Source: Cafeteria roenbergensis (Eukaryota > Sar > Bigyra > Bicosoecida > Cafeteriaceae). From it: a stretch of DNA of 64,000 nt. The translations under genes and the position numbers were made by a program. This document shows, piece after piece, positions 25,183-39,429 of this stretch. The stretch covers positions 744,001-808,000 of the forward strand of contig VLTN01000001.1 of NCBI GenBank assembly GCA_008330645.1. The letters run 5' to 3'. How positions within the stretch are numbered: the stretch's first letter is position 1; every line of letters starts with the position of its first letter. The notes under the pieces were generated by a model, which saw nothing but the letters and a program-made list of their open reading frames with translations, was not told the origin of the DNA and ran no database searches.

Positions 25183-26510
25183 ATGCGTGTCCTCGCGCTC
25201 GCAGGGCTCGTCGCCCTCGCTGCTGCCTCTCGTCCCAGCGCAACAAAGCTCGCAGCGGACCAGATTCGCGAGGCTGCCAACGCGATCCGATTCCGCGCGC
25301 GGCGGGCGCCTTTGCTGGACCAGGACGAGGCATCCAAGCAAGCGCGCGATACCAAGCCCCACACGGGCGCCAACGCGCAGTTCCCGGCCGGGTCGGCTGA
25401 CAAACCCCACGAATCCCTGATCCGCCACCCGGGTGAGCCGCCTGTCGCTCCGCCGCGTCGTGCATAGGAGACCTCCCCGCAGAAATGCATTGCCTCCTCG
25501 CTCTCGACTCTGCGAGGCCTGCGGCCCATCCGATCGCCCCTGCGGGGGATAGTGCCTGGAAGCGGCATGCAATGTGGCGATCTTGCGGCCGCGGTCCGTG
25601 GCGGAGGGCTTGCCTGGCGAGGGCTTGCCTGGCAGCGGCGTCGGCACCCCTTGCCATCCCGTCAGCCCGCGGTGTGCTGCTCTGTGCCTCCTCTTGCCGC
25701 ATTCCCGCAGGCGTCCCTGGCGCCTCCGACGCAAACGCTGATGTGACACCACTCGACGCAATCGGTGGCAATCTCGAGGACACCCACGCCTACGCTGCGC
25801 AGGCTTCGTACCAGCAGAACCTCAAGTGAGCCCCACAACGCGACAAGCTGTTCCCTCGCAAAGTCCCACTCTGCGGAAGCAGAGAGAGCCAACTTGCCTC
25901 CGCCTTCCCCCCCCCCACCCCCCGCCCCGACGGCCCTCGTGGTCCGCGAATGTGCACGACTGTGCTCGCTTTGGCCCCTCGATACCCCTCCTGCTGCAGG
26001 GAGCTTGTCCGCGAGCTCGACGACTCCGAGGAGCAGGCTCGCACGCTTCGCCTCAAACTGATGGAAAAGGATAACCTGCTCGGAACGATGCTCCACCGCG
26101 AGAAAATCATCGACATCGACCTTGGTGAGCGGAAGCAGGAGCTGGCGGCCATCAACGCGCACATCCAGGGCATCGAGGCCCGCGTGGACCGGTTGAAGAA
26201 GGAGCGCCGGTCGATGGAGCTGACCTCCCAGAAGCATCAGTACGACTCGGCTGCAAACACTCTCAAGATGCAGGTCAACGATGTTCAGCAGGTTTCGTCG
26301 GCCCTCGAGTCGCGCGTGCAGCACCTGAACGAGCGCATCACACGGCAGGTGCAACAGGAGGCCACCGCGCTGCGGCGCTCGCTGCAGCCCCGCGTCGCAG
26401 GGGGCGACGAGCGAGACGAGGGCGCCGCCACTGCCATTGCCTCCGCCGCGGGGAACGTGCCAAGCCCGCCAGTGTTCATGCAACGCAGCAGCCGCCGGCT
26501 GCGCTCGTGA
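25183..26510 (+). CDS. Secreted or lumenal coiled-coil protein, unknown function
   Basis: Three exons: 25183-25432, 25711-25825 and 26000-26510, phases 1 then 2; 291 residues. The N-terminus is a signal peptide (MRVLALAGLVALAAAS). A short basic/polar region follows, then from about residue 120 a long heptad-patterned coiled coil: LVRELDDSEEQARTLRLKL, through IDLGERKQELAAINAHI and VDRLKKERRSMEL, to about residue 245. The tail is Ala/Ser-rich and basic. The junctions give continuous sequence (QQNLK|ELVREL). I do not recognise a family. Signal peptide plus coiled coil is the general form of some protist extrusome and surface-scaffold proteins, but there is no specific motif to claim that. Confidence 0.75.
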
Positions 26511-26860
26511 TGGCGGGAAGAGCAGTGAGTGTGTTGTGCGTGTGCGCCAGAGCTGGCCGCGACGCCCATGGTTTGAATGTCGTCTCAAGCGGCCGCTCTT
26601 CCAGGAGCTTCGCGGCTCGCGAGCAGCGCGCTGGGCGTGCCCTGGAGTTGCACATACAGGCTGTGCAGAGCTGCGTGGCCGTTCAGCAGCGACCACATTT
26701 TTGCAGCGGCCGCGAACTCCCAGGGGCCGGCGTCTGGGCCGCACGCCGCCTACAGGCCCGCGCCGATAGCGAGCGTCCTGCGCAGTGCACCGGTGCCCGT
26801 AGGCGGTGGTTTGCGACCGGGGCCCGCTGTGCGGACCGCGCGCGAGCCGCGGCTGCAAGC
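26511..26860. other. 350-base spacer before the MSP-kinase gene
   Basis: It contains the 3' end of the coiled-coil gene and the presumed promoter and leader of the kinase gene. A GT-rich stretch (GAGTGTGTTGTGCGTGTGCG) starts about 15 bases after the coiled-coil stop. The frame of the kinase gene stays open back through the spacer, so a more upstream start cannot be excluded, but the upstream residues show no domain. Confidence 0.5.
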
Positions 26861-29800
26861 ATGGACGACCCGCCAGTTCAGCCGTCCGTGCCGGCCTCGC
26901 CCACGGCGCATTTGTCTCTCCCCGCCGCGCCCGGGATGCAGCCGCACCACCGGAAGGGCAAATCCTCGACGCGGCGTGCTCACAAGCAGCCTCTTCTGTC
27001 CATGGCCCCGGAATCACAGCTTGCGTTTCCTCGTGAGTCGCAACTGCGCCGATGCCGCCGCCCAGAGTCTGCCATTTGTGTTCCGAACGCCGCTGAGCAA
27101 CCCCGTCTCGGTGCAAACGCACGCGGTGCGCCTTGCCTTGCGGTCTGCTGGTCGGGTGCGGACGAAAACGCCGGGCATGCAGCCCGTTGCGCCCGCTTGC
27201 CAAGGGCTGCCAAGGGAGCCCCGGACTCAGCCTCCCCACGCCTTTGCAAGCCTGCCCTCCCCCCCCCCCCGCACGCCACCGCAGTTGGGCCAGACGTGAG
27301 AAGCGAAGCGCGGCTGCTCCTGACCAACCCTCACTCGACGGGGCGCACAATCGCGTTCAAAGTCAAGACCAACGCGGCGTCAAAGTACCGCGTGGGTCCC
27401 AGCCTGGGCATCCTCTCGCCCGGCCAAACGGCGTCCGTGCGCGTGCTCATGTCTCGCGAGGCATCCTTGGCGCTCCTGGGCGAGGGCGAGGGCGGATCAT
27501 CGCAGCCGCTGCCGTGCAAGGACAAGTTTCTCGTCATGTCCGTGTCTCTGCACCAGGAAGACCTCGTGGCGCTGGGCGTGAGCCACGGAGGGGCGGGCGG
27601 GAGCGGCGGCGCAGACCCGAGCCCCGTAGGCGGGGCACCGGGGGGATCGGCTTCGCTGTCGGCACTGTGGGGCAAGCGAGACTGGAAGGGCCGGGCGCGG
27701 CAGGCCAAGCTGACGGTTCGTGTGTACAGGCCGACGGACGTGTCAGACGACGACTCCGAGGACGACGGGGGCTCTGTGGCCGGGGGCCGGGCGGGCGTGG
27801 CTGGGGCCGAGCCGAGGCGACGGGCCAGCGCCGGAGCGTGGGAGCCGCTCGCTGCCGACGAGGCAGGGCTGGCCGGGTCCATCTCCCGTGCAGCCAGCCC
27901 CAGCATGCGGCGTGGCGGCAGTGACGGCAGTAGCCGCCGTGAGGACGGCCTCGGGGCCGAGGAGGACTGCACGCTAGCGGGGCACGTGTCCAGCGTCGGG
28001 GCGGCGGATGACTTGCCGCCGGCGGGGGCGTCGGGGAGCCGCCCCCCCAGGATACGACGGACGCCCAGCCTCAGCACGGGCAAGCAGCGGCCGCAGGCCA
28101 TGGTGGGTGTAGGGGACCTGGACGCCCCTGCCTCGCCTCCGGCCTCCGTGGCGGCGGGCGCGGGGGCGGGCGGGGCGGGCGGGGCGGGCGGGGCGGGCGG
28201 GGCGTGCGGCGGCGTTGGCCCCCCTATGGCGGCGTCCCCCACCCCGCACACCCCTGCCAGCGCCAGGGGAAGGACCAGGCTCAGCCGCACGTCGTCTGTG
28301 GGGCGGCGACAGGGCCCGCCGGCGCTTCTGAGCCCGGGCACTCCCGGGGGGCGCTCCCACGGCTGGCCCGCCCCCGGGGGACAGGGGGCTGTCATGGGAG
28401 GCGCGGGGCACGCCGGAGGGGGGGCGGGCGCTGACGGTCTGCCGGTAGGGTCCAGGGTTGCCAATGGACGGGGTGGCGCCGGCGGGGCTCTGCCGGCCTC
28501 GCCAGCGGCTGGACTGCCACCTCTCGCCGTGGGCGCTGTGATGGCTGGCCGGCCAATGGGCGGCCGCGACCAGACTCTGACCGGCCGCAGCGCTGGCGGG
28601 CCCGCTCTCTCGCTGGCGCTCTCGGCGCGGTCGGGCGCCTCCTTCGGCTCCTACCAGTCCGCCACAACCGGGGGGCGGTCATACGGGTCGGTCGCTCTCG
28701 ACATGGGCGCCGGAACCGTGGCCCCGGCGGAGCTCTTCGCGGAGGGCGGTTTCGCGTCGGTCCCGAAGGAGGGCCTGCCTGCCATGGACGGGTTTGCGTG
28801 GCGGGCGGGGCCGGAGCTTGGACGCGGCATCAGCGGGCACGTGCACGTGGGGCTGCGTCTCGGCGGCAAGGGCCCGCGCGGCTCCATGACCGCCGACGGG
28901 GCGATGCCGCCCCCAGACTCGGAAGCGGGTGCCGAGGAAGGGGCGCCGCGCGAGGGGCCCGGGGCGCCTGACGAACAAGGCGCTCCCAGCCAGCTCCTGC
29001 AGGCCCAGGCGTCTCTCATCGCCGTCAAGATGGTCGAGGTGACCACGGTGGGAGAGCAGCGCAGCCTGGAGCGCGAAATCAGGGTGCTCAGGGCGCTGCG
29101 GCACCCCAACATTGTGAGTCTTCGTTGGCGGGAGGGGTGGCAAGGCGGCGAGCGAGCGAGCGCGGGTTGCCCTCGACGAGGGCGTGCTGACGGCGTTGCA
29201 AGACGCCGAGCTGCTGCAGCCGCACAGGCCGCAGCCGGTGCTTGGATCGCCTTTGCAGCTGCTCGCTGGGGTAGGTGCGAGCTGCGGCGCCATTTGAGCG
29301 AGCTTTGTTCAGCCTCCGCCTCTGCCTCTGCCGAGACGCCACACCGCGCTTCTGGCCCGTTCTCGCGCCCCGCGCCCTGCCCGCCCACGCAGGTCCGGTA
29401 CCTTGGCACAGAGAGCGTCGGCCCCACCCGCTCGTCGCCTCTCCCAGCTGTGCGGATCTATATGGAGTTTGCGACGGCGGGCAGCGTCGCGCACCTGGTG
29501 AAACAATTCGGCCCGCTGCCCGAGCCCGCTGCGGCATCACTCGCCCGCCAGCTGCTGGAGGCGCTGGCGTACTGCCACGCCGCAGGCATTGCCCACCGCG
29601 ACGTCAAGGGGGCCAACGTCCTCGTGACGCACGCTGGCGTGGCCAAGCTAGGCGACTTTGGCGCCTGCAAGCTGCTCCCCCCAGACAGCAAGCCATCGCC
29701 CTCGTCGGCAGCCGCAGCGGGTGGTGCGGGTTCGGTCGCACCAGCTGCGCCTCCGCCAGCCGGCGCAGACGGACCGGGCGGCGGCAGCTGGGACGGACCC

Positions 29801-32800
29801 GGTGGCCCTCCCATGGACGGCAACAGCGCCACCGGGGTGTTTGCTCCCAGCGAGCTCGCCTCCTCTGTGGACGGCAGCGTGGCGCCGCTCGTGCAGCGCG
29901 AAGCGGCCATCGAGCTAACGCCGCGAGCAGCGTCGGGCGCCCCTGGCGACGGCGCGGCCGCCGGCGCAGCCCCCTCGGCCTCGCTGCCTTGGACCCACGC
30001 CGCGCTGCCTTGCGCGGACGAGGCGAGCGCCAGCCCCACAGAGCAGGGCACGGTCCAGTGGATGGCGCCCGAGGTGGTGGCTGGCAGCGTGCGCGGCCGC
30101 CAGTGGCTTGCCGCGGACGTCTGGTCGGTCGGCTGCACTGTCGTCGAGATGCTGAGCGGGAAGCCGCTATGGGACGACGCGGACAACGCCGCCTCCGTCA
30201 TGATGGCCATCGCGTCGAGGGACGCGATCAAGACGGCAAAGCGGCGCCTGCGAGGCAGGGCCTCGCCGCGCGCAGTCGCCTTCGTGGCCAAGTGCCTCGT
30301 CGCCGACCTCGCCTCCCGGCCGACCGTGGCCGACCTGCTCCGCGACCCGTTTGCGGCAAAGGCGGGCATCCCCCCGTCGCTTGCCGGCGTTGGACCCTAC
30401 CCTGCGTCGCTCACCCCCTCGCAGTCGGCTGGGTCCTCGATGCTCGCCTCCCGCGTTCGAGGCGTGGCGGGCACCGCGCCGGGCTCCTGCGCCTCTCATG
30501 GAAGCCTGGGCACCGTGGCTGGGGTCCAGCAGGGGATCCACGCGCCCCCGGGCGGTCGGTGGCGCGGCGCGGCTCATGCCTGGCTTCGCCTTCTGACCCA
30601 GGCGGAGGCCGAAGCAGCGACCGCTTGCGCTGCCTCTGCCGCGGCCGCGGCCGCGGCCTTCGGCCCCGCAGCGACAGCACCGCGAGCCGCCACAGCTGCA
30701 TGCGCGACGATGAGCCCGGGCGCCACAATTCAGGCGGTGTCCCTGGGCGTCCGGCCGCTGGTGCTGCTGGCGGAGAGTCTCCCGCTGCCCCTCTTGCTGG
30801 CACCAGCGGCAGCCTGCGAGGAGGGCAGCGGCCGGATCCGGGCGCTGCTGCAAGCCGTGGTCGCCGCAGCACCGGTGTGCCAGCTCTTGCTCTCCAGCAG
30901 GCCGCACTCTGCAGTGGCTGCGCACCCGCTTGCAGCGCTGGCGGCCTCTGCGGCGGCTGGAATGGCCGTGCCTCCCCTGCCTGCCCTCACGCCGACCTTG
31001 GGCCGCTCGGTAAGCTTTGGCGGCGCCGAGAGCGGGGTCGCCCCCCTGGTCGCAGCGGGGTCTGCCCACGCCGCGACCGACCTCACCGAGGCGCGCGCTC
31101 TGGCCGGCTGGCACAGGGAGGCGCGCCGGCGGCGCATGTTCCTGCTCGCGCGCCTGCTGGGCACCCCCCCGGAGGCCAGGCAGGCGATGCGGGCGGCTGA
31201 GCCACACTCCCCCGATCGGCGCCGGCCAGGCTCGTCGTCGAGGTCTGCGGGCGAGGGCACCGTTCGTCGCCCGCGCACCGCGGACGCCGCGGCCACGAGC
31301 TCTGCCGCCCGCCTCTTCGGCTCCGAGGCTCCGTCCTCGGGGGGCTCCCCGCGGCGCGCCGGCCAGTCGTCGGGCTCGCGCTCAGCGAGGGGGGCGTCGC
31401 CTGGCCAGTTCCGGCCCAGGAGCGGCAACGTGGCTGCAGGCGCCGCCCACGGCCACCACCTGGCCCTCGGCCCCGCGCGCAGCAGCCTGCCGCTGCTGGA
31501 GCCGCCCTCCCGGCTCGAGCGGGAGTTGAGCCGTGCCGAGGCCATCCAGGCAGCGCGCGCGCTGGCGGTTCACCTGGAGTGCGCCGTTGCAAGCCTCTAC
31601 GGCTCGCTCTCTCGCGCCCGGCGGCTGCACGGGCACTGGGCCGTCGCAGGGGCGGGCCCGCAGCAGGAGGGCTCTGGAAGAATCGTGCTTGCGGCCGCAG
31701 CGCCCGGTCCCACCGGGTGGTCCGCCGACCCGCGGTCCCCCGACGAGGGCGAGGCGCCGTCAGCCGAGGGCAGTGGGCACGGGGAGGGCGAGCCGGGCAG
31801 CGGATCTGCTGTTGGCGCAGGGGAGGGGCCTCCTGACCCCGCCGGCATCGCGGCCGTGTTCGGGCGGGCGGCGTGGTTCGCCAGGCGCCTGCTCGCCAGT
31901 GCAGGGTCGCTGGCTCTGCCCACGAGTGTGGCGGACAGCGATGCCCACGACGGGCCGCTGGCTGTCTTTGGGGGCGGCGATGCCGCCGAGGCGTTGCCTG
32001 GCTCCGGCTGGGACGCGGGGTGCGATGTGACGGGAGGGGCCGGCCACGGTCTCGTCGACCCGTCGCTGGCCACGGGGCCGGACGACTGGGTGGCACCCAG
32101 CCCTGGGCACGCTGCCGCCCCGAGCGTGGACCGCGGCCGAGGCGTCCTCGACGAGGACAGCGACCACGACGACGCCGCCAGCGCGGCTGCGGCGCAGGCG
32201 GCGGCGGCGTCGCACTTCGGGCCGGGCGGCGGGGGGCCTGATTCTTCTGGCACGGCGCCGGCTCTCCCGGCACCGCCAGTGCGGCCGCCCGGTGCGGCCG
32301 TGATTGCGGCATCGGCTCTTCAGCTTGTGGCCGGGGGTGGCCGTCCTGGCTCTGCCGCCGGCTCTGCCGCGGGGTCGGCGTCGGCCGGAACGCCTGGCTG
32401 GGCGAGTCGGGCAGGCGACTCGGTGGGCAGGGCGGGCGGTTTCGGGTCCAGCCCCGCAGGCAGCGCAAGCAGCGGGAGCGATCGGCACGGGTTCTTCGCA
32501 TCGCCGGGCAGGCAGAGGGGCGGCGCTTCGGGTCAGCGAGGGAGCGCAGGCGAGCGGGCGGCGACCCCACCCAGGGGCCCGCGAGCCGGAGCCCGGGCCA
32601 GCCTCGCGCCGGGAGGGTCGTCCACGTGGCGAGATGTGGCGCCGGCTGTGGCGTGGGAGCTGGCACTGGCCAGCAGCTGGCCAGACGCTGCAACGCTGGC
32701 GCCACTGCTGGCCATGGCCCAGGCCACCGACGCTGCAAGGGAGCGCGCGGCCGAGGCGGCGGCGAGAAGGTTCGCGCCAGCCCCCGCCCCAGCGTCGGCG

Positions 32801-35605
32801 CGGAGTCTGGTGGCTGCGCTCAGCCCTGCCTCTGCAGCTGCGGCGGCGGCGGCAGAGGAGGCGGATGAGGCTGCCTCGGCGGCCACCGGGGCGTCCGTCC
32901 GCCTCCTCTCCAGCGCAAGAAGCGCGTTGCTGGGAGGGGCCTCTGACGGCCTGCACTCTTCCGCGCCGCTCGCAGCGGCTGGCGGAGATGCGCTCGAGGC
33001 TCTGGAGCAGGTGGAGGCTGCCACGCGGGCCGCAGCCGCCTCCGCCGGCGGTCCGGGTGCCTCTGGCGACGCCGGCGGTGGGGCCAGCGCCGGCGCTAGC
33101 GGCGACGGCGACGGTGTGGAGGGCGACGGTGTGGAGGGCGAGGCCGGCGCCGCGGCCTCGGCCTCGCGTGGCGAGCGGACCGAGGACGTGGCCTCGCTAC
33201 GCCGGGCAGGGCTGGCGCTGCTATGGCTCGAGCGGGCCAGGGCGCACGCGGAGGCGCGCCGGCAGGCGGGCCGGTGGCTGGCCGAGGAGGCGGGGCAGGC
33301 GAGCGCCGCACGCGCTGGAAGGGCATGGCGCGGGGCTCCGGACGCCGGGGGAGAGGCGCTGTCGGCGGAGGGGGCGCGCAACGGCCGGCTGAGCGGCCGC
33401 GCTGCCGACGACAGGGCACCTGCCGACAGCCAAGCCGGTGGTCGCGGCTGCGCTGCCGAGGAGGAGGGTGAGACTCCGACCGATGTGCTGCTGGACGTCG
33501 ACCACGTGGCCGATCTGCTTGGTGCGGGCGCGAGCGCGCGGGAGGCCACAGGCGCCGACGTCGTGCGGGTGTGCCTGACGCGGGCAGGCACGTCGGCCCT
33601 TGCCAGGGCCGTGCTCGCCGCAGACGGCGGCGCAGCCGGCGACGTCCGAGCGGATGTTGGCCTCGCGGCCAGCAGCTGCAACGACGACGGCGGCAGCAGC
33701 GGCAGCGGAGACGCAATGGCACAGGCTGCGGACGACGTCTCCGCCGTCGTCCGCCATGGGGTCGCGGCATCCAGCGCAGGCCGGCCGCCAGCCCCAGGCT
33801 GCGTTTGGCTGCGGCTCCCACTTGCGTCGCGCCTGGGCTCGGCGCCCTTGCCAGCGTCGCCGCGCCAGGCAACCTTGGCGGAAAGCTCCGCCGCTTCGGG
33901 TCCAGGGGCCGAAGCGGCGGAGTGGCAGAGCGCCAGGCAGCTGCACCTTGCGCTGGCAGGGCTGCCGGTCCGGGCGGTGGCCGGAGCCACCCCCCACCCC
34001 TGGGTCCAGCCCGCCAGCAGCGGGTCCGCCCAGTTTCGCATCAGCCCTCCCGAGTCTCTGACCGCGGCGGTCGCGTCGCTCTACCCGTTGTCGGTCCCCA
34101 GCGCTGCCGCTCTCGCGTGGGCTGTGTCTCTGCACCTTGAGCGAGTCGTGAGGGCAGCAGAGGCGGCTCTTGCGAGGGTGCGCGTCGCCCTTGCCGCCCT
34201 GCGGGCCGCCAACGCGCCGCCGCTCCGCCGAGCGGCTCGCCTGAACCGCCACGGGCCCTCCGGCTCGCTCATTCAGTGGGCAGAGCTAGCTCTGCCGGGG
34301 CTTGTGGCGGCTCTGGCTCCAGGAGCGCTTGCGCTGGCGCTCGCCGCCCGGGCCCTTGGACCGGCAGGGCGTGCGCTCCCGGGCGCTGACGACGGTGGGG
34401 CGGCTGCAGAGCGCAAGGCGCTGGGCGGGCTGCTGCTCGCGGAGTCGCTGAAGCAAGGGGCGGCGTGGCGTATCCGGGGCATGGTGTCATCAGCGCGCCC
34501 GGGGTCACAGGGTGCCGGTGGGGCTGACGACCCGGGTGGGGACGAGGCGGCGAGCGCGGCGGAAGGGGAAGGGGGCGAGGAAGAAGAGGGCGATGGCGGA
34601 GAGGAGGGCGCGGGTGCGGGTGAGGATGCGGACGCGGGGGGCGAGGGCGAGGAGACAGGGGCGTCCGTTGACGCCGGCGGCACTGTGTCGGCGGCTGAGC
34701 GCGCTGGCGGAGCGGGTGCTGTTGCCGGTGGTGACGGTGACTTCTGCGAAGCGGGGGGCGGGGCGGGCGCAGCGGCCGATAGAGCGGCTGGCGCTGTCCA
34801 GGGCGCTCCGCCTTGGCCCAATGCGGCTCCTCCGTCGCGAGGCGGAGAACCGGCCAATGCAGCGCCGGCCGGCCAGGCCCAGGGCGGGCGAGCGGGCCCG
34901 CCGACTGGCCAAGGGCAGGAGCAGGCGGAGTGGGGGGCGCGCGCGGACGCGGGCGAGGGGGCGGGCAGCGGTGACCAGGGCGCTGACGGCCAGGCCGGCT
35001 CTGGGTGGGGGGATGAGTACGCGGGCAGGGGCGGCGCGGCGGGCGAGGGCGGGGGCTGGTGGGGCGCCGAGGGGGAGGAGCAGGGTGCGGACGAGGAGCA
35101 GACCCTGCTTCCGGGGCAGACTGAGGACGAGGATGCAGGTGGCCAGGGTGGCGGCTGGCCGGGGGCGGCCGCCGCCGAGGTGCCGGGGGAAGAGGAGGAC
35201 CCTGCCGAGGCAAGCTGGGACGACCAGGGCAGCGGCTGGGAGCAAGGGGCCGGCGCAGCCGCCAGCGCGAGGGGCGCATGGGAGGGCGAGGTCGGGTACG
35301 CGGACGCAGGCACCAGCGCCGCGGAGAACTGGGAGGCTGCCACTGGCGAGGCCGAGTGGGTTCGCGCGCTGTCCGACTACATGGCGCAGGGTGAGGGCGA
35401 GATGAGCATCGAGGAGGGAGAGCGGCTCCGTGTGCTGCGCAAGGACCCGTCGGGGTGGTGGGAGGGCCAGTCAGAGGACGGCAACCGCGTCGGCTGGTTC
35501 CCGAGCAACTACTGCGTCCGCATGTACGAGCTCTTCACGATCCAGGAGGGCGACACGCCCCGATCGGAAATGAGTCACACCGCGCGCAGTGTCGTGCGCA
35601 TGTAG
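26861..35605 (+). CDS. MSP-domain / STE11 (MEKK)-type kinase / SH3 protein, about 2,737 residues
   Basis: Exons 26861-27032, 27285-29113 and 29393-35605. Residues about 62-200 match a major sperm protein (VAP-like) domain: LLLTNPHSTGRTIAFKVKT, YRVGPSLGILSPGQ and CKDKFLVMSV. The kinase domain starts near residue 559 with a Gly-rich loop (LGRGISGHVHVG), AVK lysine 639, RALRHPNI|VRYLG, HRDVKGAN (Asp737), DFG (755) and APE (892). This is the MAP3K/STE11 pattern, so it likely phosphorylates a MAP2K. A poorly conserved 1,700-residue Ala/Gly/Ser-rich region follows, becoming acidic before an SH3 domain at about 2655-2717 (ALSDYMAQGEGEMSIEEGE, GWWEGQ, GWFPSNYC). The activation segment carries an insert of roughly 110 residues. 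Both introns are multiples of three without stops, so they can be missed. An alternative acceptor for exon 2 is at 27294. Confidence 0.85.
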   Translation: MDDPPVQPSVPASPTAHLSLPAAPGMQPHHRKGKSSTRRAHKQPLLSMAPESQLAFPRESQLRRCRRPESAICVPNAAEQPRLGANARGAPCLAVCWSGADENAGHAARCARLPRAAKGAPDSASPRLCKPALPPPPHATAVGPDVRSEARLLLTNPHSTGRTIAFKVKTNAASKYRVGPSLGILSPGQTASVRVLMSREASLALLGEGEGGSSQPLPCKDKFLVMSVSLHQEDLVALGVSHGGAGGSGGADPSPVGGAPGGSASLSALWGKRDWKGRARQAKLTVRVYRPTDVSDDDSEDDGGSVAGGRAGVAGAEPRRRASAGAWEPLAADEAGLAGSISRAASPSMRRGGSDGSSRREDGLGAEEDCTLAGHVSSVGAADDLPPAGASGSRPPRIRRTPSLSTGKQRPQAMVGVGDLDAPASPPASVAAGAGAGGAGGAGGAGGACGGVGPPMAASPTPHTPASARGRTRLSRTSSVGRRQGPPALLSPGTPGGRSHGWPAPGGQGAVMGGAGHAGGGAGADGLPVGSRVANGRGGAGGALPASPAAGLPPLAVGAVMAGRPMGGRDQTLTGRSAGGPALSLALSARSGASFGSYQSATTGGRSYGSVALDMGAGTVAPAELFAEGGFASVPKEGLPAMDGFAWRAGPELGRGISGHVHVGLRLGGKGPRGSMTADGAMPPPDSEAGAEEGAPREGPGAPDEQGAPSQLLQAQASLIAVKMVEVTTVGEQRSLEREIRVLRALRHPNIVSLRWREGWQGGERASAGCPRRGRADGVARRRAAAAAQAAAGAWIAFAAARWGRCELRRHLSELCSASASASAETPHRASGPFSRPAPCPPTQVRYLGTESVGPTRSSPLPAVRIYMEFATAGSVAHLVKQFGPLPEPAAASLARQLLEALAYCHAAGIAHRDVKGANVLVTHAGVAKLGDFGACKLLPPDSKPSPSSAAAAGGAGSVAPAAPPPAGADGPGGGSWDGPGGPPMDGNSATGVFAPSELASSVDGSVAPLVQREAAIELTPRAASGAPGDGAAAGAAPSASLPWTHAALPCADEASASPTEQGTVQWMAPEVVAGSVRGRQWLAADVWSVGCTVVEMLSGKPLWDDADNAASVMMAIASRDAIKTAKRRLRGRASPRAVAFVAKCLVADLASRPTVADLLRDPFAAKAGIPPSLAGVGPYPASLTPSQSAGSSMLASRVRGVAGTAPGSCASHGSLGTVAGVQQGIHAPPGGRWRGAAHAWLRLLTQAEAEAATACAASAAAAAAAFGPAATAPRAATAACATMSPGATIQAVSLGVRPLVLLAESLPLPLLLAPAAACEEGSGRIRALLQAVVAAAPVCQLLLSSRPHSAVAAHPLAALAASAAAGMAVPPLPALTPTLGRSVSFGGAESGVAPLVAAGSAHAATDLTEARALAGWHREARRRRMFLLARLLGTPPEARQAMRAAEPHSPDRRRPGSSSRSAGEGTVRRPRTADAAATSSAARLFGSEAPSSGGSPRRAGQSSGSRSARGASPGQFRPRSGNVAAGAAHGHHLALGPARSSLPLLEPPSRLERELSRAEAIQAARALAVHLECAVASLYGSLSRARRLHGHWAVAGAGPQQEGSGRIVLAAAAPGPTGWSADPRSPDEGEAPSAEGSGHGEGEPGSGSAVGAGEGPPDPAGIAAVFGRAAWFARRLLASAGSLALPTSVADSDAHDGPLAVFGGGDAAEALPGSGWDAGCDVTGGAGHGLVDPSLATGPDDWVAPSPGHAAAPSVDRGRGVLDEDSDHDDAASAAAAQAAAASHFGPGGGGPDSSGTAPALPAPPVRPPGAAVIAASALQLVAGGGRPGSAAGSAAGSASAGTPGWASRAGDSVGRAGGFGSSPAGSASSGSDRHGFFASPGRQRGGASGQRGSAGERAATPPRGPRAGARASLAPGGSSTWRDVAPAVAWELALASSWPDAATLAPLLAMAQATDAARERAAEAAARRFAPAPAPASARSLVAALSPASAAAAAAAEEADEAASAATGASVRLLSSARSALLGGASDGLHSSAPLAAAGGDALEALEQVEAATRAAAASAGGPGASGDAGGGASAGASGDGDGVEGDGVEGEAGAAASASRGERTEDVASLRRAGLALLWLERARAHAEARRQAGRWLAEEAGQASAARAGRAWRGAPDAGGEALSAEGARNGRLSGRAADDRAPADSQAGGRGCAAEEEGETPTDVLLDVDHVADLLGAGASAREATGADVVRVCLTRAGTSALARAVLAADGGAAGDVRADVGLAASSCNDDGGSSGSGDAMAQAADDVSAVVRHGVAASSAGRPPAPGCVWLRLPLASRLGSAPLPASPRQATLAESSAASGPGAEAAEWQSARQLHLALAGLPVRAVAGATPHPWVQPASSGSAQFRISPPESLTAAVASLYPLSVPSAAALAWAVSLHLERVVRAAEAALARVRVALAALRAANAPPLRRAARLNRHGPSGSLIQWAELALPGLVAALAPGALALALAARALGPAGRALPGADDGGAAAERKALGGLLLAESLKQGAAWRIRGMVSSARPGSQGAGGADDPGGDEAASAAEGEGGEEEEGDGGEEGAGAGEDADAGGEGEETGASVDAGGTVSAAERAGGAGAVAGGDGDFCEAGGGAGAAADRAAGAVQGAPPWPNAAPPSRGGEPANAAPAGQAQGGRAGPPTGQGQEQAEWGARADAGEGAGSGDQGADGQAGSGWGDEYAGRGGAAGEGGGWWGAEGEEQGADEEQTLLPGQTEDEDAGGQGGGWPGAAAAEVPGEEEDPAEASWDDQGSGWEQGAGAAASARGAWEGEVGYADAGTSAAENWEAATGEAEWVRALSDYMAQGEGEMSIEEGERLRVLRKDPSGWWEGQSEDGNRVGWFPSNYCVRMYELFTIQEGDTPRSEMSHTARSVVRM
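28163..28204 (+). repeat. G-rich GGGGCGGGC minisatellite inside the kinase gene
   Basis: A 9-base unit repeats about four times, giving Gly/Ala repeats in the protein. The run of GGG and GGGG blocks spaced by single C is a strong candidate for a G-quadruplex on the coding strand. It lies in the disordered stretch between the MSP and kinase domains. Confidence 0.75.
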
Positions 35606-35833: not shown

Positions 35834-37273
35834 ATGGCCGCCGCTCGTGCGACCGAGAACTGGGCGAAGGACATTCAGACGCGCGCGGACATCTCGGCAT
35901 TCCGACGCGCGGCCTTGGAGCTGTGCGCGCGCGTCCCGCGCGGCAGCGTTGTGACGTACCAGGCTCTTGCCGACGCGACGGCGAAGGCGACAGGGGCTCC
36001 AAAGTCGTCCGCCCGGGCGGCGGGCGGGGCGATGAGGCACAACCCCTTCGCCCCCTCGGTCCCGTGCCACCGCGTCGTCACCACGTCGCTGAAGCTCGGC
36101 GGATTCTCGGGCAGCAGCGACCCGGACGGACCCAACCTGGGCCGGAAGACAGCGCTGCTCCTGGAGGAAGGCGTGGGCATGGATGCCGTGAAGCGCACGG
36201 TGGACGCTGGCGCCTTGTACAGGTTCACCGAAGCAGACATTGCCCACGCCGCCAAGGCATGGGCCGCCCACACCGCGTTTTTGGAGGAGCACAAGGCGCC
36301 CAGCGGCTCCAAGCGCCCACGCGCGTCGTCGCCTGCGCCGGCCCCAGCGGAGAAGCGCACTTGTTCCGATGGCGCCGCCGCCGCCGCCGACGCAACCGGC
36401 CGGGTGCCGGGCCACTTCTCGAGTCCGGCAGCCCTGCGCGCGGCCTGCTCCTCCGGCGCCTTCACGGGGCAGACGGCGGGCCAGTGCCCGGGCTATGCTC
36501 AGGCCAACCTGGTGATCGTGCCTGCAGCCTTCGCCGACGACTTCGCGCTCTTCTGCGAGCGAAACCCGAAGCCCTGCCCGCTCCTGGAGCAGCTGGCCGC
36601 GGGGGACCCTGTGAGCCGCTCCATGGCCCCCGGGGCGGACATCCGCACCGCCCTGCCGCGCTACCGCATCTGGCGCGACGGCGTGCTGGCAGGGGAGGCT
36701 GATTCCGCGGAAGCCGCCTGGGCGGAAATGGCCGCGATGGAGGCAGGGGCAGATCGAGGTGCCGCCCGCGACGCCTCTGCTGCCGACGCCGCCGCGGCTG
36801 CGCGTGGGGGCCCTGTGGCCTTCCTGCTGGGCTGCTCCTTCAGCTTCGAGGAGGCCATGGAGAAGGCCGGCCTGCCCGTGCGCCACGTGCAGGAGGGAAG
36901 GAATGTGCCCATGTTCGCGACAACTATCGAAACCAAGCGAGCAGGTCGCTTTCACGGCGGCATGGTCGTCAGCATGCGGCCGATGACGTCAGCGCAGGCC
37001 GAGGAGGCCGCGCGCGTGACCGGGCGCTTCGCGCGTGTGCACGGCGCGCCGGTGCATTCGGGGGACCCCGCTGCGATCGGGGTCAAGGACGTTTCCAAGC
37101 CAGACTTTGGGGAGGCAGTCACGGTGAAGGAGGGCGAGATCCCCGTCTTCTGGGCTTGCGGCGTGACCCCGCAGCTCGCGTTGCAACAGGCCCGGCTGCC
37201 CCTAGCCATCACGCACAGCCCGGGGCACATGCTCGTGCTGGACAGCCGGAACGAGGACCTGGCGACTGCTTGA
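35834..37273 (+). CDS. O6-methylguanine-DNA alkyltransferase domain fused to DUF1445 (D-glutamate cyclase-like) domain
   Basis: Single exon, 479 residues. Residues about 14-125 are the DNA-binding/alkyl-acceptor domain of MGMT: RGSVVTYQALA, ARAAGGAMRHNPFAP with the arginine finger, the acceptor cysteine in VPCHRVV, and GGFSGS ... RKTALLLEEG. The N-terminal half of full MGMT is missing. After a Pro/Ala linker (150-190), residues about 195-475 match DUF1445: AFTGQTAGQCPGYAQANLVIVP, NPKPCPLLE, DIRTALPRYRIWRDG, AFLLGCSFSFEEA, RNVPMFATTIET, VVSMRP, VHGAPVHSGDP and VFWACGVTPQ. DUF1445 proteins include bacterial putative hydro-lyases and the N-terminal part of mitochondrial D-glutamate cyclase. Both halves keep family core motifs. 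No internal splice signal is needed. The pairing has no obvious pathway logic. Confidence 0.9.
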   Translation: MAAARATENWAKDIQTRADISAFRRAALELCARVPRGSVVTYQALADATAKATGAPKSSARAAGGAMRHNPFAPSVPCHRVVTTSLKLGGFSGSSDPDGPNLGRKTALLLEEGVGMDAVKRTVDAGALYRFTEADIAHAAKAWAAHTAFLEEHKAPSGSKRPRASSPAPAPAEKRTCSDGAAAAADATGRVPGHFSSPAALRAACSSGAFTGQTAGQCPGYAQANLVIVPAAFADDFALFCERNPKPCPLLEQLAAGDPVSRSMAPGADIRTALPRYRIWRDGVLAGEADSAEAAWAEMAAMEAGADRGAARDASAADAAAAARGGPVAFLLGCSFSFEEAMEKAGLPVRHVQEGRNVPMFATTIETKRAGRFHGGMVVSMRPMTSAQAEEAARVTGRFARVHGAPVHSGDPAAIGVKDVSKPDFGEAVTVKEGEIPVFWACGVTPQLALQQARLPLAITHSPGHMLVLDSRNEDLATA

Positions 37274-37384: not shown

Positions 37385-38459
37385 TCAAAAGTCCATCACT
37401 TCCGTCTGCATTCCGCATCGTTTGCAGGTCTGAACCGACGATGCGCGCTCCGCGTCCCACTTGGCGTCGCAAAAATCGTGTCCGACTTTGGCGCAGCCCT
37501 GCAGGCCGCGGTCGTCGGCCTCAAAAACGACCGCGCCGACCTGCTCTCCCGGGCTCGCGGGGGGACTGGCCGCCCCCGCAGCCGCATCGCTCGCCTTGCG
37601 GCGGCCGAGGAGCGACGGAGGCAGCTCGAGCAAGCTCGCCGGTGAGGCGCTGGCGCTGCCGCCGGGCCCAGCGGTTGAGCCCCGCCCCTCCCCCCCACCA
37701 CTTTCCCCCTCCTCGTCGCTGCCGCCGGGCAGAACCAAGGGACCGGTCTCATCGTCGTCGTCATCGCCGTCGTCGCCATCGCCGTCGTCAGCGTGCCGAG
37801 GTCCGGCCCGTGGCGCGCAAACGACTGGGCGTGCGCCCTCACCACCCGCCTCCCCGACAATGTCCAGACCGATCGCCGCGCCGAGGGCAACGGCTGTGGA
37901 TGGCGCCTCCGATGCGCGGCGTGCGCCCTTTCCCCGAGCGGTGCCGCGCCTCACCTGCACTCGCGCCAGGCGCCGCCGGTGGTGCTCGGCCTCCAGACCT
38001 TCCGGCCCGCCCCACTTGGCGTAGGCCTTCTCTCTCTGCGGGCAGCGGGGAGGAGGCGCCGGAACGCGGCTTGGGAGTGGAGGCGGGAGGGGGGCGTTGC
38101 TGCGACTCAGCAGAGTGCCTCCGAGGCTCCACCGAGGAGGAGCAAGGGCTTCGGGAGCGGGGCTGCCTCACGAGCTGCTTGAGCAAATAGAGCCGCATAT
38201 CCCGAAAGCGGGTGTTTCGAGGGTTGGGCTTGAGCTCCGAGGGAATCACGGCGAGGTCGCTGTCAGAGAGCAAGTACTCGGCTTTCGCTGTGGTTTTGGT
38301 GACGGTCCGAAATCCGTCCGTCTCGCGAACGCAGGCGCGGCACACACGCTCGCCGAACTTGTCCATAATTGCCTGTATGTACGTGGCTGACCCGCACCCG
38401 GCGCAGCCAGTCTCCCGGCTGCCGTCCGCTTGCGAGCCGAGCGGCGGAGCTACCTGCAT
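37385..38459 (-). CDS. XPA: XPA-like nucleotide-excision-repair protein
   Basis: Exon 1 38459-38172, exon 2 from 38035 to 37385; the intron is 136 bases and phase 0. The product is about 312 residues. Exon 1 carries the XPA zinc finger C19-x2-C22-x17-C40-x2-C43, the same spacing as human XPA, then TTAKAEYLLSDSDL and NTRFRDMRLYLLKQL. Exon 2 continues EKAYAKWGGPEGLEAEHHRRRLARVQ and ends with GHDFCDAKW...QTCKRCGMQTEVMDF, like the conserved XPA C-terminus. XPA checks damage and positions TFIIH and RPA. After ARVQ the text CAG|GTGAGG is a good donor, so the acidic Asp/Gly stretch at 37690-37800 may be an intron; the frame stays open through it. The N-terminus before the zinc finger is only 18 residues, shorter than usual. 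Confidence 0.85.
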
Positions 38460-38688
38460 GGCAGCCCGCCAGCCCTGGCACCGCCAGGAAGGCTCACAGC
38501 GCGAGCCGGCAACCTCCCAAGCTTCGCGGGAACGCCTTGCCCCTCCCGAGGCGCGGCTGCTCGCCGGCCGGCTGCGGAGTGACTTGCTGCATGGCTCTGC
38601 GCAGAGGTCGCAAGGAAATCGAAATTCAAGCCTTGCCGCCGCGCCCGGTCGCACTCTTCCGGGCAAAGCCCCGGGCCCCAGGTTGGTC
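38460..38688. promoter_or_regulatory. Divergent promoter interval, XPA / TLC gene
   Basis: 229 bases separate the two start codons. No CCAAT or TATA-like word is evident. The XPA frame stays open into it, so the XPA start could lie further upstream. Confidence 0.35.
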
Positions 38689-39429
38689 ATGCACCCGTCG
38701 CTTTGGTGGATGACTGGGGATGAGCTGATGGCGTGGCTTGGGTTCAGCATGTCGCTCTTCGCTGTGTACTGGCTGTTCCGTCCCATCCTGCCGGCGCTGG
38801 GCTGCCGCCGCAACCCCAAGGGTCCCGATGACGAGGCCAGCAGCCAGCGCCAGCACGGCTGGATCCTCAGTGGCGTCACCGGGGCCGTGCTGTCTGTCGT
38901 GGGCGCTGTGCAGTGCGCCGAGATGCTCCAGCTGTTCCTCAAGGAGGGCACCGAGCACAGCGCGTGGGAGGCCTTCTTCAACGAGTACCCGGCTTACATT
39001 ACGTACGCAATCGTGTTCTTCATGGCTCACTGTGTCGTCGACACGGTGGTTGGCACCATCTGGTACCCCAAGGCCATGGACATGGCTTCGGGGTACATCC
39101 ACCACGCCGTGTACCTGTACGTGTGCCTGTACGCGCTGCGCGTGTGCCCCCGGATCTTCGCGCTCTTCTTCATCGAGGAGTTCCCCACGCTGCTGCTCGC
39201 CCTGGGGAACTGGCACCACGGCCTGCGCAACGACAACTTGTTCGGGGGCGTGTTCTTCGTGCTGCGCATCGTCAGCCACATCTGCATGCTCCTGCTCACC
39301 GGGTGGTCGCGCATTGAGCTCAAGATCGGCCTCACTCTCATGACCCTCACCCTGGGAATGCACGTCATGTGGATGCGCACGTGGTGCCTCAAGTACGGCC
39401 TCTGCAAGCGCCGCCCCAAGGCGTCGTGA
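38689..39429 (+). CDS. TLC-domain (TRAM-LAG1-CLN8) membrane protein
   Basis: Single exon, 246 residues with about six to seven membrane helices. The TLC pattern is visible: HGWILSGVTGAVLSVVG in the first third, the middle AHCVVDTVVGTIWYP, then YIHHAVYLYVCLY with the paired histidines, and FFIEEFPTLLLALGNWHHG. TLC proteins include ceramide synthases and TLCD/TMEM56-like proteins that affect lipid composition. It lacks a homeobox and the long ceramide-synthase N-terminus, so it is closer in size to TLCD-type proteins. The basic end (KRRPKAS) could help retain it in the ER, but that is a guess. Confidence 0.8.
   Translation: MHPSLWWMTGDELMAWLGFSMSLFAVYWLFRPILPALGCRRNPKGPDDEASSQRQHGWILSGVTGAVLSVVGAVQCAEMLQLFLKEGTEHSAWEAFFNEYPAYITYAIVFFMAHCVVDTVVGTIWYPKAMDMASGYIHHAVYLYVCLYALRVCPRIFALFFIEEFPTLLLALGNWHHGLRNDNLFGGVFFVLRIVSHICMLLLTGWSRIELKIGLTLMTLTLGMHVMWMRTWCLKYGLCKRRPKAS

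What the first reader, a model, noticed from the sequence alone, without database searches (positions are those of the whole stretch)
35834..37273. DNA-repair alkyltransferase domain fused to a DUF1445 domain
One intronless gene encodes an MGMT acceptor domain with intact PCHRV cysteine, arginine finger and Asn hinge, then a complete DUF1445 domain (D-glutamate cyclase / putative hydro-lyase). The two have no known shared pathway. The fusion may point to a link between alkyl damage and metabolite repair, or to a DUF1445 substrate that creates alkyl lesions.
Basis: partly seen in the sequence, partly recalled or inferred. Interest (0 to 1): 0.72.

Follow-up and report, generated by a model that had tools for sequence, protein, structure and literature searches.

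The report
Alkyltransferase repair domain fused to DUF1445
A marine flagellate gene appears to join a self-sacrificing DNA-repair domain to an amino-acid-metabolism enzyme domain in one protein, a pairing that none of the searches made here showed elsewhere and whose purpose is untested.

Summary
Window 35834-37273 (+) is one open frame of 479 codons: an O6-alkylguanine-DNA alkyltransferase (AGT/MGMT) acceptor domain with its catalytic residues, a linker predicted disordered, and a complete DUF1445/UPF0317 domain. DUF1445 has no in-frame ATG of its own after the AGT domain, and the AGT domain has no stop before it, so a joint product is the simplest reading; no RNA was available. Assembly size fits Cafeteria strain BVI, a bacteria-eating flagellate (inferred). 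Each domain was found only here in that genome; DUF4392, the vertebrate partner of DUF1445, is a separate gene. The proposed link between alkyl damage and metabolite repair is not supported: of 80 bacterial DUF1445 loci, 46 have 5-oxoprolinase pxp genes within 5 kb (50 with hydantoinase-type ones), while none has an AGT gene adjacent and one has it 5.3 kb away. AGT C-terminal domains fused to other functions are known, so this is a new variant of a known kind with an unusual partner. Best reading: a bifunctional protein with two independently working domains. Unexpected: the convergent neighbour encodes XPA, a nucleotide-excision-repair protein.

The parts
35834..37273 (+). single ORF, 479 aa plus stop: AGT acceptor domain - linker - DUF1445
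35900..36175 (+). AGT/MGMT C-terminal acceptor domain, PF01035, aa 23-114; no N-terminal AGT domain found
   Evidence: E 9e-20; the only PF01035 match found in the genome
36062..36076 (+). PCHRV acceptor motif, Cys78 at 36065-36067
36014..36043 (+). R61 (arginine finger) to N70 (Asn hinge)
   Evidence: invariant columns R61 and N70; phmmer alignment to human MGMT
36284..36409 (+). Ala/Pro/Ser-rich linker, aa 151-192; aa 155-190 predicted disordered; holds KRPR (aa 160-163), a possible nuclear-localisation motif
   Evidence: pLDDT below 50 at aa 155-190; KRPR and shuffle frequency 0.014; the NLS meaning is recalled, not tested
36413..37249 (+). DUF1445/UPF0317 domain, aa 194-472
36728..36808 (+). 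27-residue Ala-rich insert in DUF1445 (aa 299-325), absent from 80 of 80 bacterial relatives; no GT is followed by an AG in 36722-36814

Best explanation
A real gene fusion that makes one bifunctional protein. Step 1 (inferred from motifs): the N-terminal domain flips O6-alkylguanine out of DNA and irreversibly takes the alkyl group on Cys78. Step 2 (inferred from homology and bacterial gene neighbourhoods): the C-terminal DUF1445 domain works separately in D-glutamate / 5-oxoproline metabolism. Step 3 (inferred): a flexible linker lets the two work side by side without shared chemistry; a basic KRPR motif in it may send the protein to the nucleus. Because no other AGT acceptor was found in the genome, this protein would carry the cell's direct O6-alkylguanine repair. 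A consequence known for other AGTs, but only predicted here, is that alkylated protein is unstable and degraded, which would remove the attached DUF1445 too. The fusion probably arose by joining two genes with no prior functional tie.
For: One frame with no internal start for DUF1445 and no stop after AGT; both domains at strong scores; AGT catalytic residues retained; DUF1445 conservation 61 of 64 columns and fold match to 2pif and 3db9; third-position GC similar in the two domains (0.86 AGT; 0.88 and 0.85 DUF1445); each domain found once in the genome; DUF1445 near pxpA or pxpB/C-like genes in 46 of 80 bacterial loci, 50 of 80 if four hydantoinase-type neighbours are added; a full-length Hydantoinase_B domain in the same genome; a review states that some organisms fuse only the C-terminal AGT part to other functions and that alkylated AGT is destabilised and degraded (PMC10779285, passages).
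Against: No RNA, protein or second strain was available. Codon-position GC is less coding-like in the linker (0.74, 0.76, 0.83) and in the insert (0.92, 0.79, 0.67) than in the domains. The AGT half was modelled poorly: pLDDT below 50 at aa 65-100, and a separate AGT model had mean pLDDT 52.6, so its fold rests on sequence alone. The N-terminal AGT domain, which aids activity in other AGTs, was not found. The activity of DUF1445 alone is not shown in the passages read. No PxpA was found in this genome, and four of the five closest bacterial DUF1445 relatives (L008, L004, L009, L006) have no pxp neighbour within 5 kb.
Confidence: 0.62

Rival explanations
1. Functional coupling: the two activities serve one purpose, for instance DUF1445 removes or senses a metabolite that can alkylate DNA, or alkylation of Cys78 clears the protein and so switches the metabolic activity off.
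For: Physical fusion of the only copies of both domains found in the genome; known alkylation-triggered loss of AGT (PMC10779285, passages).
Against: No AGT gene adjacent in 80 bacterial DUF1445 loci, one at about 5.3 kb; the neighbourhood points to 5-oxoproline instead; no alkylating DUF1445 substrate appeared in the passages read.
Confidence: 0.13
2. Two gene products share one open frame: separate transcripts or alternative splicing make AGT and DUF1445 apart.
For: Open frames are cheap at this GC content: 12,809 of 18,250 sampled 42-codon stretches are stop-free; the linker is less coding-like by codon position.
Against: DUF1445 has no in-frame ATG between M116 and M264; the AGT frame has no stop until 37271; no GTGAGT-like donor in 36151-36460, the nearest being GTGAAG.
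Confidence: 0.1
3. The AGT-like domain no longer repairs DNA by alkyl transfer and serves as a DNA tether or a structural part for DUF1445.
For: N-terminal AGT domain not found; only 18 of 27 well-conserved columns match, with L86 and F91 where most relatives have G and Y, and three gaps.
Against: Y42, R61, N70, PCHRV and E112 are kept; loss of function would free these to drift; no other acceptor found in the genome.
Confidence: 0.11
4. Assembly artefact joining two genes.
For: Not excluded by any read data here.
Against: Continuous frame and similar third-position GC in both domains; if the assembly is CrBVI, it was built from PacBio reads, polished with PacBio and Illumina, and broken at coverage drops (PMC6972860, passages).
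Confidence: 0.04

Closest known systems
AGT C-terminal-domain fusion proteins (AGTendoV of Ferroplasma acidarmanus; AGT-2 of Caenorhabditis elegans)
   Same: Only the C-terminal AGT part is present, fused to another function in one polypeptide (PMC10779285, passages).
   Different: Their partners are an endonuclease or a histone-like domain; here the partner is a metabolic-type domain with no known role in DNA.
O6-alkylguanine-DNA alkyltransferase (human MGMT, bacterial Ogt/Ada C-terminal domain)
   Same: PF01035 with Tyr, Arg finger, Asn hinge, PCHRV and Glu.
   Different: No N-terminal AGT domain (PF02870) detected; fused C-terminal partner.
UPF0317 / DUF1445 proteins (PSPTO_5379, PDB 2pif; Atu3911, PDB 3db9; B. 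subtilis YcsI, the last named from recall)
   Same: About half of residues identical; same fold over 247 residues for 2pif.
   Different: The two solved chains are 276 and 269 residues long and align without an AGT part or the 27-residue insert.
Vertebrate D-glutamate cyclase (DGLUCY, C14orf159)
   Same: Contains DUF1445.
   Different: There DUF1445 is joined to DUF4392 in a mitochondrial protein (PMC5339696 and PMC5132392, passages); here DUF4392 is a separate gene and DUF1445 is joined to AGT.
Alkyltransferase-like (ATL) proteins
   Same: AGT-like domain without the N-terminal domain (PMC10779285, passages).
   Different: ATLs lack the acceptor cysteine (recalled); here Cys78 is present.

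Membership tests
AGT/MGMT alkyltransferase | PF01035 above its gathering score | tested here: met
   70.7 bits against 27; TIGR00589 56.4 against 46.4
AGT/MGMT alkyltransferase | Acceptor Cys in PCHR, arginine finger, Asn hinge, Tyr and Glu | tested here: met
   C78, R61, N70, Y42, E112 are invariant columns of an alignment of the window with 11 bacterial relatives
AGT/MGMT alkyltransferase | N-terminal AGT domain (not strictly required, PMC10779285) | tested here: not met
   no PF02870 hit in the protein; only 22 residues precede the acceptor domain
[quoted passage not shown]
   needs an assay
DUF1445/UPF0317 | PF07286 and NF003969 above cut-offs | tested here: met
   221 bits against 25; 363 against 324
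DUF1445/UPF0317 | Near-invariant residues of the family | tested here: met
   61 of 64 columns; exceptions at aa 206, 273, 400
DUF1445/UPF0317 | UPF0317 fold | tested here: met
   [not shown]
DUF1445/UPF0317 | D-glutamate cyclase activity | not testable with these tools
   shown for the two-domain mouse protein (PMC5339696, passages)
DGLUCY-type D-glutamate cyclase | DUF1445 and DUF4392 in one protein | tested here: not met
   DUF4392 lies at G000:C36:32046-33185 as its own gene
DGLUCY-type D-glutamate cyclase | Mitochondrial location | not tested
   no predictor was used
ATL protein | Acceptor Cys replaced (recalled definition) | tested here: not met
   PCHRV at aa 77-81
AGT C-terminal-domain fusion | C-terminal AGT domain alone joined to another domain | tested here: met
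   joint translation inferred from DNA only

The most novel reading that the evidence does not exclude
The fusion makes a metabolic enzyme answer to DNA damage: when Cys78 takes an alkyl group from DNA the whole polypeptide is destabilised and cleared, so DUF1445 activity falls in step with alkylation damage, or DUF1445 acts in the nucleus on a small molecule that would otherwise damage DNA. Either would be, to my knowledge, the first tie between suicide DNA repair and D-glutamate / 5-oxoproline metabolism.
Probability: 0.1. Interest if true: 0.75.

Novelty: new variant of a known kind. Interest (0 to 1): 0.42.

Why it matters
If translated as one protein, the only alkyltransferase acceptor found in this genome is tied to a metabolic domain, so the cell would spend or relocate that domain each time it repairs a lesion. 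The genome also splits the two halves of vertebrate D-glutamate cyclase into separate genes, which makes it directly testable which half, DUF1445 or DUF4392, carries the cyclase activity. A bacterivore takes in D-glutamate from bacterial cell walls (general knowledge), so such an activity would have a plain use there.

Tried and rejected
Searches for the same fusion: viral contigs with each half (no pattern match for DUF1445; 42 pattern matches for AGT, none confirmed); plasmids, full length (239 of 72,556 records match, 0 cover 80% of the query; the 30 of 239 rows shown all match DUF1445 only) and AGT half (none); phages (2 of 50,697 records, DUF1445 only); 294 genomes of the phylum of G003 (244 have a match; no listed row covers both domains; the rows that run furthest beyond the AGT domain, to aa 209 at most, contain stops; in the 7 genomes whose listed rows show both domains, G099, G133, G180, G192, G206, G266 and G319, the places are far apart or on different contigs; at most 5 candidates per genome were scored and the list was cut).

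Is the linker an intron? No GTGAGT-like donor in 36151-36460. A poor GTTCAC donor at 36223 with an AG ending at 36423 would be in frame (by eye) and would still leave a fusion. Is the DUF1445 insert an intron? No AG follows a GT within 36722-36814.

Literature: in the listings (20 of 31 shown; 1 of 1; 6 of 6; 15 of 88; 4 of 4; 1 of 1; 5 of 5; 8 of 1,382) no title or abstract start described an AGT-DUF1445 fusion; subscription papers are not held. Passages only were seen of PMC6972860, PMC10448178, PMC5339696, PMC5132392, PMC3265494 (irrelevant) and PMC10779285.

Species identification by 18S failed by machine error; the Cafeteria assignment rests on assembly size, contig number and GC only.

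Full report
What is there. Window 35834-37273 (+) is a single open frame of 479 codons plus a stop. Pfam places PF01035, the acceptor domain of O6-alkylguanine-DNA alkyltransferase (AGT/MGMT), at aa 23-114 (E 9e-20) and PF07286, named D-glutamate cyclase (DUF1445), at aa 328-470 (E 6e-66). The longer NCBIfam model for the UPF0317 hydro-lyase family scores 363 bits against a cut-off of 324, and the AGT model TIGR00589 scores 56.4 against 46.4. Two solved UPF0317 structures match, one from aa 195 and one from aa 204 onward.

Is it one gene? At this base composition an open frame means little: 12,809 of 18,250 sampled 42-codon stretches in the window, on both strands, have no stop. Two facts carry the weight. 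The in-frame methionines are at 1, 67, 116, 264 and beyond, so DUF1445, which starts near aa 195, has no start codon after the AGT domain. The AGT reading has no stop until 37271. Third-position GC is similar in the AGT part (0.86) and the two DUF1445 parts (0.88, 0.85); the linker (0.74, 0.76, 0.83 for the three positions) and the insert (0.92, 0.79, 0.67) are less coding-like. The upstream kinase gene ends 228 bases before the ATG. Its apparent intron begins GTGAGT; no donor of that form lies in 36151-36460, the nearest being GTGAAG. That is one yardstick intron only. No transcript data were available, so joint translation is inferred, not shown.

The AGT half. Against 30 bacterial AGT domains, 18 of 27 well-conserved columns match, including Y42, R61, N70 and P77-C78-H79-R80-V81; the nine others are A27, L28, V34, A63, L86, F91 and three gaps. 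In a second alignment of the window with 11 relatives, the invariant columns include G37, Y42, R61, N70, P77, C78, R80 and E112. The assignment of R61 and N70 to human R128 and N137 follows the alignment with human numbering recalled. No N-terminal AGT domain was found. A review says this domain is not strictly required and that some organisms fuse only the C-terminal AGT part to other functions, such as an endonuclease or a histone-like domain (PMC10779285, passages seen). Structure prediction of this half was poor, so it adds nothing.

What DUF1445 does. In mouse, a protein with DUF1445 and DUF4392 converts D-glutamate to 5-oxo-D-proline; the authors found racemase homology in DUF4392 (PMC5339696, passages). 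A stand-alone archaeal DUF4392 protein showed weak Mn-dependent phosphatase activity, and its authors noted the animal fusion with DUF1445 (PMC5132392, passages). So which half is the cyclase is open. In B. subtilis, ycsI lies in the operon of pxpABC 5-oxoprolinase (PMC10448178, passages); that genome holds a PF07286 match (control), and that it is YcsI is recalled. In the 80 bacterial loci fetched (the best 80 of 261 confirmed), 46 have pxpA or pxpB/C-like genes within 5 kb and 21 have an NRAMP-type transporter within 3 kb; hydantoinase B genes add 4, giving 50 of 80. Only 55 of the 80 loci hold 3 kb or more on both sides, so these are lower bounds. Against this, the four loci L004, L006, L008 and L009, the closest to the window's domain, are among the 34 without pxp neighbours, L004 being a short contig. 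Ten genes near L006, L008, L009, L019, L053 and L070 were scanned: L053 showed a YcsF gene and L070 a hydantoinase B gene, the others no common theme.

Link between the halves. Of the same 80 loci, within the flanks held, none has an AGT gene next to DUF1445; one (L051) has one about 5.3 kb away. AGT genes occur in 26 of 28 of these genomes that were searched (28 of the 80 were given). No fusion was seen in plasmids, phages, viral contigs or the listed rows of 294 genomes of one phylum, with the limits told under Tried and rejected.

The organism. G000 has 36,303,456 bases in 167 contigs. A published assembly of Cafeteria roenbergensis strain BVI has 36,327,047 bases in 170 contigs and 70.1% GC; the other three strains have 218, 270 and 396 contigs (PMC6972860, passages). 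The match is close, so I infer this strain; it is not proven. In this genome PF01035 and PF07286 each match once, here, with the caveat that domains broken by introns could be missed. DUF4392 is a separate 403-aa gene on another contig. A full-length Hydantoinase_B (519 of 519 positions) is present; PxpA was not found.

How it most likely works. A bifunctional protein: the AGT domain takes alkyl groups from DNA on Cys78, once per molecule; DUF1445 works separately in D-glutamate / 5-oxoproline metabolism; the linker, predicted disordered at aa 155-190, allows both. The linker's KRPR could be a nuclear signal; a motif of that form arises in 1.4% of shuffled 42-residue stretches of this composition, which is suggestive only. 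Shown: sequence, domains, conserved residues, copy number by search. Inferred: joint translation, activities, location, consequences for turnover.

Novelty. AGT C-terminal-domain fusions are a known kind; the DUF1445 partner appeared in none of the searches above and in none of the paper listings seen. I rate it a new variant of a known kind, of moderate interest. Its value lies less in the proposed pathway link than in two tests it opens: whether suicide repair drags a metabolic domain along, and which half of D-glutamate cyclase is the enzyme.

Unexpected neighbour. The convergent gene on the minus strand encodes an XPA homologue: PF05181 E 2e-13 and solved XPA chains, best E 1.8e-9. Two DNA-repair genes next to each other may be chance; it was seen after the fact and not tested.

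Noticed in passing
window 37842-38981 (-), XPA match about 38154-38405: The convergent downstream gene encodes an XPA nucleotide-excision-repair homologue (PF05181 E 2e-13; solved XPA chains, best E 1.8e-9). Its tail may lie in the ORF 37388-37960 (-), which gave no significant match. Two repair genes would lie tail to tail.
   Followed up: partly
G000:C36:32046-33185 (-), L084:1480-2691: DUF4392 (GLUCM-like_C, E 1e-69), the vertebrate partner of DUF1445, is a stand-alone 403-aa gene in the same genome.
   Followed up: partly
G000:C57:33070-34707 (-), L087: A full Hydantoinase_B domain in a 1540-codon open frame, perhaps a eukaryotic-type 5-oxoprolinase; no PxpA found.
   Followed up: no
window 26507-35605 (+): Upstream gene with protein kinase, MSP and C-terminal SH3 domains; an apparent in-frame intron near 29114-29392 with a GTGAGT donor (ends by eye).
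   Followed up: partly
window 36728-36808 (+): 27-residue Ala-rich insert within DUF1445, absent from 80 of 80 bacterial relatives.
   Followed up: yes
L070:1-4843: In an uncultured alphaproteobacterial contig DUF1445 sits between a hydantoinase B gene and an FAD-linked oxidase gene, a second 5-oxoproline-type context. The hydantoinase frame also carries release-factor domains, perhaps an assembly fault.
   Followed up: no
[not shown]
   Followed up: no
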